DNA of 48,897 nucleotides from Deltaproteobacteria bacterium (lineage in GTDB: Bacteria > Myxococcota > JACPTQ01). The position numbers and the translations under genes were made by a program. The notes below the pieces were generated by a model, which had not been told where the DNA came from, ran no database searches, and saw only the letters and a program-made list of their open reading frames with translations. The stretch lies in NCBI GenBank assembly GCA_016192705.1, contig JACPTQ010000047.1:1-48897 (forward strand), read 5' to 3'. Of the stretch, positions 44,964 to 48,897 are shown one piece after another; position 1 is the first letter of the stretch, and each line of letters begins with the position of its first letter.

Positions 44964-47900
44964 ATGAACGCTAAACCTTTTCGCAATCGGTTCATTCTCG
45001 CGGCCGGCGCCGCCGCAGCGCTTTGGGGTACGCCGCGCCCCGTCCTCGCCGATCCGTTTCAAGACTCGACCTTCGTCACGTCGACACCCAGCTCGGCTGT
45101 TCTCGTCGTCGTCCGCGAACGGTACGACTCGGCCACCGCTCGGCAGTCAATCTACTTTCGGTTGAACCACGCAAGCGCGACGGCGCGGTCCGCGTTCGCC
45201 GCGATCGTGTTTGACGGCGTCACGGTGCAGAGCGTCCTCACAACGGCCGCGGAGGTCGACGGCTCCGACGCGACGTGGGGAATTGCGAGCGCAGCAACGT
45301 ACGGGAACGGAACCGCGGGGCGCGGGCTCGAAGGAACGCCGCTCACACAGTCGCCCAACTCTGATTCGTTGCGGTTCGTGAACGGCGCCGGCTCCGCGAC
45401 GCTCAATTTCTGGATGCGCTCGACGACCGACATCGACGACTTCCGCGTCATCGTGCAGCACACGTCGCCACTCACACGGGCGCGCTTCTCTATGCGACTT
45501 TGCGGCGCGTGGAACGAAGTCAACGTCTGTAGCCCCGCGCCCGAAGGTTGGCCGGCCGGCGACGCGATCTTTTTTCATATCGGCAGCACCACCACCTCCA
45601 CGGCACCGGACGACGGCGATTTTTTTCTTTTTGACTCAGCGTTTTACGGCGACTCATTCGTGAAACTCGTCGTCAAAGATTTTGACATCGAAGAAGTCGG
45701 GTGCGGGGTCCAAACATCGCCCGCGTCCGCACCCATTTTGAGTCTTGGCAGCGCACAGTCCGGCACATCCACCAGCGTCACGACTTTCACCGCGAACAAC
45801 AGCTCGTCGGGTGGGCTTTTGTGCAGCGGCTCGTCGGACATCGCGGGCGACAACGGGCGCGATATGGAGCCGAACGGCGCGGCCGTAAACGCCAACACAA
45901 ACCTCGCGTCGCTCAAACACATCACGTCGGCCCTCGTCAGCGATGCCGGCGCATCGATTCCGCTGCCAAATGTTTTTGTGGTCGGGCACCCGTCGGCCCT
46001 CGCGGTCGGCGAGCGAATGGCGATTGGCGTTTACGTGACGGTGCCCGGCGGCCAAGCACCCGATGTTTACGAAGGCCTCCTCGCCACGTACGAAGACAGC
46101 AACGGGAACAGCGCCATCGACGGCACGGAGCCAGCCGAGTACCTCACGCTCCGCGTCACGGTGGTTGCGCCGCCTGACGCGGGACCCGACGCGGGACCTG
46201 ACGCGGGACCCGACGCGGGCGAAGACGGTGGCGCCGATGCGGGTGAAGACGGCGGTGCCGACGCGGGCGATGACGGTGGCACCGATGCCGGACCGGATGC
46301 GGGTGCGGACGACGGCGGCATCGACGGTGGGGACGGAGGAGCAGATGGAGGAACCACCGACGGAGGTGTCGACGGTGGCACGGACGGCGGCTCCGCCTTT
46401 GATTACGGCTATTTGCGCGGCGGTTGCGTGTGTGGAGCCGGACTCTTCTCCCTGAATGACGCCCTCTCCGGAATCTTGCCCATCGCGATCGTGATCGCCC
46501 TGTTGTTAATCCGTGCGCGCCGCCGTGGCGCAGCGCTGATCGTCGCACTTGCAGTTTCGCTTGGCGTCGCGACTCTGCCCAGCAACGCCAACGCACAAGG
46601 CGCCGACATCCAAAATTTCAAACCCGCCGCGGGCGGTGGACGCTTCGTCACAACGACCGACGCACGAACGCTTGGACAATGGGGGCTGCATTTTGCCTTC
46701 AATTTGTCCTACGGCAAAGACCCGCTCATCTATTACAAGAACGGGAAGAAGACGAGCGACGTCGTCGCCAACCAAATCGGCGCCGAGCTCGCCGCTGCGG
46801 TCGGCCTCTTCAATTTTCTCGACATCGACGTCGCCGTCCCAGTCGCCATGGAGTCGGGACGCTCGGCCGACCTTGCCTCGGCGCTCCCCATTGCCGCGAT
46901 GGGAAACGTCCGCACGGCCCTCAAGCTGCGGATCCTCGACGGCCGAAGAAAGCTGGTCGGGCTTTCATTCCACTCTGAAGTTACCGTCCCGACGGGCTCA
47001 ATTTCGGCGCTCACGGGATCGGGTTCCGTCGAATACGCTCCGTCGCTCGCGTTGAGCGTTGGCACCAACGTTTTCGCGATGGCGCTTAACGTCGGCTACC
47101 GCGTTCGTGCCGCGAGTCAAGTCGCGGGATTCACCTATGACGACGAAATCTTTTATCGACTCGGCCTCGCGCTTCGCCTCAAGAAGCCACCGTTTCACCT
47201 CGTCGCCGAAGGCTTCGCTGCAACAAGTGCCGTGCGGCCATGGCAGTCCGAGGTTGAGAATCCGGCCGAGGGCTTTGTCGGGTTTCGCTTCCCGTTCGGC
47301 AAAGGTTTCCTCTTCACGTTTGGCGCTGGCGGCTCGCTCCTTCCCGGATATGGAACACCGGCCGTACGCGTCATGTCGGGATTTGCGTACCTTCCCGAAA
47401 AAGCCGAGCCTGAGCCGGTCGTCATTCCGCCGGAGATTCGCAAAGACCCTCCGCTCGAAGACGCGAGCGCGGACGACGACGGCGACGGAATCCCAAATGG
47501 CCGCGACCTTTGTCCGTACGAGTCCGATCTCCGCGATGGCAAGGCCCCGCCCGAGCCGCGCGACGGGTGCCCGGTTCCTGTGATCGACACCGACGGCGAC
47601 GGCGTCCCCGACAAGGACGATCTCTGCCCCACCGTCTTTGGACTCGCGGAAAACCGTGGCTGCCCGATCGTCGACCGTGACTTCGACGGGATTCCAGACA
47701 AAGACGACAAGTGCCCACTCGACCCCGATTTGCGCTCAGGCGATTCGAAGCGCGACGGCTGCCCAATCGTCGACAGCGACGGCGACGGCATCCCGGACAT
47801 TTTCGACAAGTGCCCCAAAGAACCGACAAGCGGCGACGTCCCCATCGACGAGCATGGTTGCCCGCAAAAGGGCCAGGCGCTCGTCCTACTCAAGGCGGAC

Positions 47901-48263
47901 CGAATCGTCCTCAAGCAGAAGATCCGGTTCTACCCAGGAACCGCAAAGATGCGCGAGGAATCACTCCCCATCCTCGACCAAGTCGTCTCGCTTTTGAAGC
48001 GCCATGAGAACATCGCGAAGTTTCGAATCGATGGACACACCGAGCGCGTTTTCAAAGACCAGAAGAAAAACGTCGTCCTGTCGGAGCAAATGGCGGAGTC
48101 CGTGCGAAAAATCTTGATCGAGCGCGGAATTCACGCGGACCGGTTGGCGGTTTTCGGTTATGGCCAGCGTCGACCGATTGCGTCGCACAAGACGGTCGTT
48201 GGCAAGGAAGAGAACCGGCGCGTCGAATTCGTTATCATTGAACGTGGAGGCGCGAAGGAATGA
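44964..48263 (+). CDS. MYXO-CTERM-like surface protein fused in frame to an OmpA-type barrel protein
   Basis: About 1099 residues. Signal peptide (FILAAGAAAALWGTPRPVLA); beta-rich surface region (~25-400); Asp-Ala-Gly/Asp-Gly-Gly repeats (~402-477); GGCVCGAG (~487) followed by a hydrophobic segment (LPIAIVIALLLI) and RARRR, i.e. a MYXO-CTERM-like sorting signal that should end a protein. The frame goes on: RRR, a second hydrophobic stretch (ALIVALAVSLGVATLP) and SNANAQ, a signal-peptide-like segment, then a beta-barrel (~546-810), about five thrombospondin-3 Ca2+ repeats (DTDGDGVPDKDDLCP type) and an OmpA C-terminal peptidoglycan-binding domain (IDGHTER, VFGYGQRRPI, NRRVEF). No internal ribosome site was found. 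Followed by a coupled OmpA-domain gene (ATGA). Confidence 0.85.
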   Translation: MNAKPFRNRFILAAGAAAALWGTPRPVLADPFQDSTFVTSTPSSAVLVVVRERYDSATARQSIYFRLNHASATARSAFAAIVFDGVTVQSVLTTAAEVDGSDATWGIASAATYGNGTAGRGLEGTPLTQSPNSDSLRFVNGAGSATLNFWMRSTTDIDDFRVIVQHTSPLTRARFSMRLCGAWNEVNVCSPAPEGWPAGDAIFFHIGSTTTSTAPDDGDFFLFDSAFYGDSFVKLVVKDFDIEEVGCGVQTSPASAPILSLGSAQSGTSTSVTTFTANNSSSGGLLCSGSSDIAGDNGRDMEPNGAAVNANTNLASLKHITSALVSDAGASIPLPNVFVVGHPSALAVGERMAIGVYVTVPGGQAPDVYEGLLATYEDSNGNSAIDGTEPAEYLTLRVTVVAPPDAGPDAGPDAGPDAGEDGGADAGEDGGADAGDDGGTDAGPDAGADDGGIDGGDGGADGGTTDGGVDGGTDGGSAFDYGYLRGGCVCGAGLFSLNDALSGILPIAIVIALLLIRARRRGAALIVALAVSLGVATLPSNANAQGADIQNFKPAAGGGRFVTTTDARTLGQWGLHFAFNLSYGKDPLIYYKNGKKTSDVVANQIGAELAAAVGLFNFLDIDVAVPVAMESGRSADLASALPIAAMGNVRTALKLRILDGRRKLVGLSFHSEVTVPTGSISALTGSGSVEYAPSLALSVGTNVFAMALNVGYRVRAASQVAGFTYDDEIFYRLGLALRLKKPPFHLVAEGFAATSAVRPWQSEVENPAEGFVGFRFPFGKGFLFTFGAGGSLLPGYGTPAVRVMSGFAYLPEKAEPEPVVIPPEIRKDPPLEDASADDDGDGIPNGRDLCPYESDLRDGKAPPEPRDGCPVPVIDTDGDGVPDKDDLCPTVFGLAENRGCPIVDRDFDGIPDKDDKCPLDPDLRSGDSKRDGCPIVDSDGDGIPDIFDKCPKEPTSGDVPIDEHGCPQKGQALVLLKADRIVLKQKIRFYPGTAKMREESLPILDQVVSLLKRHENIAKFRIDGHTERVFKDQKKNVVLSEQMAESVRKILIERGIHADRLAVFGYGQRRPIASHKTVVGKEENRRVEFVIIERGGAKE

Positions 48264-48897
48264 CGGCCGCGATCATCGCTCTTTCAATGATGTTGCATGG
48301 GCAAATCCGCGTCGACGTTCAAGAGCGCCGGATCCAGTTGTCGGAGACAATTCGGTTCGATCACAAAAGCGCGACGATCAAAAAAGCGTCGTACAAGATT
48401 CTCGACGCGCTCGCGCGCATGCTGACGGAGAAGACCGAGATTGAAGTGTTGCGCATCGAGGCGCACAACGATTCGCTCGGCGTTGCGTCGAAGGCGATGA
48501 AAATGAGCGAAGAGCGCGCGATCGCCGTCAAGCGGTACGTCGTCTCGAAGGGGGTTGGTGAGAATCGCCTTTTGGCGAAAGGATATGGTCAAGAATGGCC
48601 CATCGCCTCCAACTGGACGCCGGCGGGGCGAAAACTCAACCGGCGCGTCGACTTCGTGCTCGTGAAGGTGCAGGGACGAGAGGTGGGGCGACGCGAGTTG
48701 CCAAAACTTTTTGGGCGCGTCCATGCGATCGCTGGTGCGGCGACGGCGACCTCAGCAGCCGACGAAAAGCCGCGCACGATCGAGTTGGGTTCGGCGATCT
48801 TCCCGGGAGATCGCCTCAGCGTTTCCACGGACGCTGAGCTCACCGTTGTTTTCCCATCGCTCCATTTCGTCGTCCTTTCGGGGCCTACAGAGGCCGA
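48260..48897 (+). CDS. OmpA-domain protein, C-terminus outside window
   Basis: Starts at an ATG overlapping the previous stop (ATGA), about nine bases after GGAGG, and is open to the right edge (212 codons). Residues ~15-130 are an OmpA C-terminal-like domain: IRFDHKSATIKKASYKILDA, IEVLRIEAHNDSL, SEERAIAVKRYVVSKGV, LLAKGYGQEWPI, GRKLNRRVDFVLV. Next comes a hinge and a FecR-like beta region (IELGSAIFPGDRLSVSTDAE, LTVVFPSLHFVVLSGP). Only a short possible signal sequence (AAIIALSMMLHG). Probably acts with the fused protein before it in tying envelope parts to peptidoglycan. Confidence 0.75.
   Translation, partial: MTAAIIALSMMLHGQIRVDVQERRIQLSETIRFDHKSATIKKASYKILDALARMLTEKTEIEVLRIEAHNDSLGVASKAMKMSEERAIAVKRYVVSKGVGENRLLAKGYGQEWPIASNWTPAGRKLNRRVDFVLVKVQGREVGRRELPKLFGRVHAIAGAATATSAADEKPRTIELGSAIFPGDRLSVSTDAELTVVFPSLHFVVLSGPTEA

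What the first reader, a model, noticed from the sequence alone, without database searches (positions are those of the whole stretch)
46380..46620. A surface-sorting signal and a signal peptide share one membrane segment inside a single 1099-residue frame
The first half ends with all parts of a MYXO-CTERM-like signal (Gly-Cys-x-Cys, hydrophobic helix, Arg cluster). The same Arg cluster then acts as the positive start of a second signal-peptide-like stretch leading to an OmpA-type barrel. Normally these are two proteins. The fusion may be a polyprotein cut at both signals, giving a surface-anchored adhesin-like protein and an outer-membrane barrel in equal amounts.
Basis: partly seen in the sequence, partly recalled or inferred. 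Interest (0 to 1): 0.7.

Follow-up and report, generated by a model that had tools for sequence, protein, structure and literature searches.

The report
Surface protein and barrel, one polyprotein
One bacterial gene encodes a cell-surface protein and an outer-membrane barrel in a single chain, joined by a short stretch that carries a cutting signal for each half; this joined form is real and recurs widely in myxobacteria and their relatives, although it had been reported only once, as a rarity.

Summary
Frame 44964..48263 (1099 aa) is open. The junction is GGCVCG (486-491), helix ILPIAIVIALLLI (504-516), RARRR (517-521), second hydrophobic stretch (523-540), NANA|Q (541-545), then a TraB-like C-half (12-strand barrel, TSP3 repeats, OmpA). 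The title is wrong on one point: the two signals share only the Arg cluster, and each has its own hydrophobic segment.

It is not an artefact of one assembly. I read the same junction in 67 non-redundant fused proteins from 57 genomes in 12 families of the phylum, including closed genomes. Other relatives are two genes (stop one codon away, or overlapping) or a lone barrel. Fused and split forms interchange about 11 times on the tree (at least 6 forced), and the cleavage residues are equally conserved in both. This fits a polyprotein cut by myxosortase near the Cys and by signal peptidase I after A-x-A, equivalent to a TraA/TraB-type pair. The genome encodes both enzymes and a T2SS secretin.

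The fused layout is already published for one protein, M. xanthus MXAN_5598 (PMC11980579). The internal signal peptide, the wide distribution and the repeated origin were not found in the papers searched. Cleavage is inferred, not shown.

The parts
44964..45050 (+). N-terminal signal peptide, MNAKPFRNRFILAAGAAAALWGTPRPVLA| (residues 1-29)
   Evidence: Translation; n/h/c regions and a VLA|D site read by eye.
45051..46169 (+). Surface (N-terminal) half, residues 30-402; no Pfam or NCBIfam domain; beta-rich in a poor model
   Evidence: Its first ~170 residues have homologues in two genomes of another family; one of these ends in a true C-terminal MYXO-CTERM.
46170..46418 (+). Asp-Ala-Gly / Asp-Gly-Gly spacer (residues 403-485)
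   Evidence: Sequence; in the same genome another DAG spacer runs straight into a C-terminal GCACG..GRRR tag (L204).
46419..46436 (+). Gly-Gly-Cys-x-Cys-Gly motif of the internal MYXO-CTERM-like signal (residues 486-491); presumed lipidation and myxosortase site
   Evidence: the same position is Cys in all 67 fused relatives (script plus eye).
46473..46511 (+). First membrane helix ILPIAIVIALLLI (residues 504-516)
   Evidence: helix 504-518 in the model.
46512..46526 (+). RARRR cluster (517-521): end of the sorting signal and start of the second signal peptide; presumed cytoplasmic loop
   Evidence: the same place holds the basic cluster in other fused forms.
46527..46595 (+). Internal signal peptide, hydrophobic and c-region, ending NANA| (residues 522-544)
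   Evidence: A at -1 in 66 of 67, A at -3 in 51 of 67, Q at +1 in 61 of 67 fused proteins.
46596..47477 (+). Mature start of the TraB-like half and 12-strand outer-membrane barrel (residues 545-838)
   Evidence: AlphaFold model, strands pLDDT mostly over 90; FapF / COG4313 barrel fold, Z 22.4 over 231 residues, 3.0 A; TraB profile covers it.
47478..47870 (+). Thrombospondin type 3 repeats
   Evidence: Pfam PF02412, three stretches.
47928..48218 (+). OmpA peptidoglycan-binding domain (residues 989-1085)
   Evidence: Pfam PF00691, 1.6e-16.
48260..48895 (+). Second OmpA-domain gene overlapping the stop by 4 bases (ATGA); probably co-translated; runs off the contig end

Best explanation
The gene encodes a two-product polyprotein of the TraA/TraB type. 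The N-terminal signal peptide exports the surface half. The first junction helix stops transfer and leaves the short RARRR loop in the cytoplasm; the second hydrophobic stretch re-starts export like a signal peptide. Signal peptidase I then cuts after NANA, freeing the barrel half (N-terminal Gln) for the outer membrane, with its OmpA domain on the wall. A myxosortase (MrtP here) cuts on the other side of the hairpin at the Cys motif, freeing a probably lipidated surface half that the T2SS carries to the cell surface. The two products are made 1:1, as needed by a receptor that sits on its own barrel. Shown: the anatomy, its conservation, the repeated fused/split exchange, and genes for the enzymes. 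Inferred: topology, both cuts, lipidation, surface location and partnership of the products.
For: Complete junction in 67 non-redundant fused proteins, 57 genomes, 12 families. Cleavage residues are as conserved in fused as in split proteins: A -1 66/67 v 40/45, A -3 51/67 v 33/45, Q +1 61/67 v 35/45, while -2 is free. Conserved Gln at +1 makes sense mainly if it becomes an N-terminus. Fused and split forms exchange 10-11 times, at least 6 forced by starred branches, and one clade of fused forms is rejected (AU p 1e-48). Both halves exist alone: own-genome pair at C16, stop and then the barrel gene in the same frame; close or overlapping pairs L010, L012, L086, L088, L096; N-half homologue ending GGGCGCG..IRRRS*. 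In Corallococcus, barrel-only relatives keep signal peptide and barrel while linker, Cys and first helix decay. MrtP 339 bits against cut-off 250; GspD; signal peptidase I. M. xanthus traA and traB overlap by 4 bases (PMC3325183) and their products form 1:1 complexes (PMC12045341); MrtX cleaves TraA (PMC11980579).
Against: No protein-level data for the window. The MYXO-CTERM HMM misses the window segment. The C-half is TraB-like but far below the TraB cut-off (217 v 700 bits), so a cell-contact function is a guess. The N-half has no known domain. The window gene is long-branched and weakly placed on the tree.
Confidence: 0.8

Rival explanations
1. Two proteins from one frame by internal initiation: ribosomes start a second time near the junction (for example at the in-frame TTG 46503), so the C-half is made separately and the fused chain is minor.
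For: In-frame TTG and GTG codons lie in the first helix, and a start at TTG 46503 would give a textbook signal peptide. traA/traB genes elsewhere overlap.
Against: Only a trivial 4-base SD-like match in the window. Across 67 fused genes, no ATG with a Shine-Dalgarno match of 5 or more; any start with one in 4 of 67, against 13 of 45 stand-alone genes; four fused genes have no start codon at all there (the search windows differ slightly).
Confidence: 0.1
2. Sequence artefact in this one assembly: a missed stop or indel joins two genes that are really separate here.
For: Single draft genome of 88 contigs. The own-genome C16 surface gene switches frame inside near-identical Cys repeats, so indels or real frameshifts exist in this assembly. 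No close relative could be found.
Against: The same in-frame junction with similar spacing occurs in dozens of other genomes, including single-contig ones such as G049 and G147. The window junction is not repetitive and all its elements fall in one frame at normal spacing.
Confidence: 0.05
3. One uncut (or once-cut) chain: the surface half stays tethered to the barrel, or is anchored in the inner membrane by the hairpin, as a single envelope-spanning adhesin.
For: Nothing in the sequence proves cleavage.
Against: A two-helix hairpin would hold the chain in the inner membrane while the barrel must sit in the outer membrane. The A-x-A|Q residues are conserved to the level of true signal peptides, and split forms do without the covalent link.
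Confidence: 0.05

Closest known systems
MXAN_5598 of Myxococcus xanthus (internal MYXO-CTERM, Guo, Haft and Wall 2025, PMC11980579)
   Same: Large surface region, internal MYXO-CTERM, outer-membrane barrel, OmpA domain; the authors also suggest a gene fusion, compare it with TraA plus TraB, and propose processing of the N-part. Its orthologue in M. xanthus AM003, next to ftsZ, is in this survey (L164), as is L224 between ftsA and ftsZ.
   Different: The window's N-half is unrelated and far shorter; its two signals abut and share one RARRR cluster; it is in a distant lineage and not in an fts cluster. The passages read do not mention the internal signal peptide, and describe internal motifs as rare.
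TraA/TraB outer membrane exchange pair
   Same: MYXO-CTERM surface protein made together with a barrel-TSP3-OmpA partner; overlapping genes; 1:1 complexes.
   Different: One frame instead of two; no PA14-like variable domain or Cys-rich repeats in the N-half; C-half 217 bits against the TraB cut-off of 700.
FapF and COG4313 outer-membrane channels
   Same: Same 12-strand barrel fold in the model (Z 22.4, 3.0 A over 231 residues); two relatives of the barrel match PF13557.
   Different: 17% identity; to my knowledge FapF has no TSP3/OmpA tail and no sorting-tag partner; a shared fold shows no function.
Bradyrhizobium FbcH cytochrome b/c1 precursor (from memory; no paper found in the library)
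   Same: Bacterial polyprotein separated at an internal signal peptide.
   Different: One cut only, both products in the inner membrane, no sorting tag.

Membership tests
MYXO-CTERM sorting signal (TIGR03901) | Short motif with invariant Cys | tested here: met
   GGCVCG 486-491; own-genome C-terminal tag RGCACG in L204.
MYXO-CTERM sorting signal (TIGR03901) | Transmembrane helix followed by an Arg cluster | tested here: met
   ILPIAIVIALLLI then RARRR.
MYXO-CTERM sorting signal (TIGR03901) | Lies at the C-terminus of the protein | tested here: not met
   Followed by 578 residues in the same frame, as published for MXAN_5598.
MYXO-CTERM sorting signal (TIGR03901) | Recognised by the curated HMM | tested here: inconclusive
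   No hit in the window; the model also misses own-genome tags L215 and L219 and scores L204 only 20.2 against 20.
Myxosortase system | Myxosortase encoded in the genome | tested here: met
   MrtP, 339 bits, cut-off 250.
Myxosortase system | Substrate is cleaved by the enzyme | not testable with these tools
   Needs protein work.
TraB (NF033763) | Signal peptide, barrel, TSP3, OmpA architecture | tested here: met
TraB (NF033763) | Score above the curated cut-off | tested here: not met
   217 bits against 700.
TraA | PA14-like variable domain and Cys-rich repeats | tested here: not met
   No such domain in Pfam or NCBIfam; no Cys repeats.
MXAN_5598-type fusion | Surface region, internal MYXO-CTERM, barrel and OmpA in one frame | tested here: met
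   same layout in L164 and L224.

The most novel reading that the evidence does not exclude
Myxococcota use a general kind of bacterial polyprotein in which one inner-membrane hairpin carries two processing sites facing opposite ways (myxosortase on one flank, signal peptidase I on the other). It releases a surface-anchored receptor and its own outer-membrane barrel 1:1, has formed or broken repeatedly with unrelated receptor halves, and the FapF-like barrel may hold or help export its own partner.
Probability: 0.6. Interest if true: 0.65.

Novelty: new member of a known kind. Interest (0 to 1): 0.5.

Why it matters
Polyproteins cut into functional pieces are unusual in bacteria. Here the fused and split states exchange repeatedly, which gives a natural experiment on myxosortase and signal peptidase processing and links dozens of unrelated giant surface proteins to TraB-like barrels as likely 1:1 partners. 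It also says that annotation should treat these ORFs as two products, and that C-terminal sorting tags searched only at protein ends will be missed.

Tried and rejected
Shared single membrane segment (title): rejected, two separate helices. Chance resemblance: rejected. Assembly artefact as a general cause: rejected by many genomes; for the window itself not fully excluded. Single origin of fusion: rejected (AU test). Internal initiation: weak support. L158, L160, L216 and L218 were spurious or unclear long frames and were left out. The genome-contig scan with the window sequence found no relative; the broad alignment A1 was too diverse for that scan. Fold of the N-half: model too poor to use (pLDDT 41). 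A paper for FbcH was not found; proteomic peptide positions of MXAN_5598 could not be read (supplements not available; it is listed among vesicle proteins, PMC4158809).

Full report
OBSERVATION. The frame is as described. ATG 44964 opens a 1099-residue protein: signal peptide, a ~370-residue surface half, a DAG/DGG spacer, GGCVCG, helix ILPIAIVIALLLI, RARRR, a second hydrophobic stretch, NANA|Q, and a TraB-like half with barrel, TSP3 repeats and OmpA domain. The AlphaFold model of the C-half plus junction gives two distinct helices (protein 504-518 and 524-535) and a 12-strand barrel at pLDDT mostly above 90. The title's 'one membrane segment' is therefore wrong; only the Arg cluster is shared. 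The stop overlaps the ATG of a further OmpA-domain gene by four bases.

RELATIVES. NCBIfam gives TraB of outer membrane exchange as best hit of the C-half, below its cut-off. A barrel profile (A1) finds relatives in 167 of 195 genomes of the phylum. I read the region before the barrel in 112 non-redundant relatives. Sixty-seven are fused: a long frame, then Cys, helix, basic cluster, hydrophobic stretch, A-x-A, barrel. Reading twelve at greater length shows surface halves of about 1,430 to 4,120 residues where the start is in view, and N-terminal signal or lipoprotein-like signals. Twelve are two-gene forms with a MYXO-CTERM-like tail ending just upstream, some overlapping; the rest are lone barrels. 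In the window's own genome the C16 pair has '..RRRSRASIQN*GRKMRVFGMRW..', one stop codon from fusion in the same frame.

JUNCTION STATISTICS. A strict script finds the whole Cys-helix-basic-helix order at 61 of 67 fused junctions, and the other six pass by eye; 0 of 476 control positions pass. At the predicted cut, A is at -1 in 66/67 and Q at +1 in 61/67, while -2 is free (entropy 3.7 bits). Stand-alone relatives show the same pattern. An uncut linker would have no reason to keep a signal-peptidase site plus the residue that becomes the new N-terminus.

EVOLUTION. On a careful tree of 59 rows, fused/split state changes 10-11 times, at least 6 forced by starred branches, and a single clade of fused forms is rejected (quick tree of 112 rows: 12 changes, at least 5 forced). 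In genome G189 a fused and a two-gene form are sisters. In Corallococcus, lone barrels keep remnants of the linker and Arg region but have lost the Cys and first helix, while signal peptide and barrel are intact. The window's N-half has homologues in another family, one of which ends in a normal C-terminal tag GGGCGCGTAGASGLAVWLLIALGLLAIRRRS*. So both halves have natural ends exactly at the junction, and fused and split states behave as equivalent.

MACHINERY. The genome encodes myxosortase MrtP above its cut-off, GspD and signal peptidase I. Published work: MrtX cleaves TraA at its MYXO-CTERM (PMC11980579); traA and traB overlap by four bases (PMC3325183; overlap in all cases examined, PMC6372800); TraA and TraB form 1:1 complexes, and TraB is barrel-TSP3-OmpA (PMC12045341).

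ALTERNATIVES. Internal initiation is poorly supported by start-codon and Shine-Dalgarno counts. An artefact in this assembly alone cannot be fully excluded, since C16 shows a frame switch within repeats, but the window junction matches the pattern seen elsewhere. An uncut chain is hard to place in two membranes at once.

WHAT IS KNOWN. The fused layout was reported for MXAN_5598 as an atypical case, with internal tags called rare. The passages I read do not mention the internal signal peptide, and I found no survey in the papers searched. Orthologues of MXAN_5598 beside ftsA/ftsZ are in the set. The window is thus a new, distant member of a known but barely described kind. What is added: the second processing site, the wide distribution, and the repeated exchange with two-gene forms. 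The barrel's FapF/COG4313-like fold is a new hint about function, no more.

STATUS OF STEPS. Shown by sequence: anatomy, conservation, exchange, enzyme genes. Inferred: both cuts, lipidation, topology, surface location, 1:1 products, partnership.

Noticed in passing
L219:1228-4177 (G000:C16, about 59727-62676): Own-genome Cys-rich surface gene upstream of the split TraB-like gene changes frame inside near-identical Cys repeats (frame 0 to frame 1): assembly indel or a real frameshift.
   Followed up: partly
window 48260-48895: Second OmpA-domain gene overlaps the fused gene's stop by 4 bases (ATGA) and runs off the contig end; its tail after the OmpA domain may be another domain.
   Followed up: no
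TraB-like family, A1 column 24 (window residue Q545): Gln at +1 of the signal-peptidase site is nearly fixed (61/67 fused, 35/45 split). A Gln rule at this position is described as specific to Bacteroidetes (PMC5837995, abstract).
   Followed up: partly
L223, L227, L229 (starts of fused proteins): Some giant fused proteins begin with a lipoprotein-like signal (for example VVFVVGC, ILAAC, LVTGC), so the surface half may carry lipid at both ends.
   Followed up: no
L060, L061, L065, L017, L068 (Corallococcus-like genomes): Barrel-only genes with decaying remnants of the surface-half linker and Arg region upstream: apparent loss of the surface half from a fused ancestor.
   Followed up: yes
L166, L199 (BNCN01000001.1, BNCN01000004.1): Records titled Comamonas sp. 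KCTC 72670 hold Myxococcus-type genes (93% identical barrel) and look mislabelled.
   Followed up: no
C-half barrel, window 46686-47390: Predicted barrel is closest in fold to FapF, the amyloid polypeptide exporter of Pseudomonas, and to COG4313 channels; two relatives match PF13557.
   Followed up: partly
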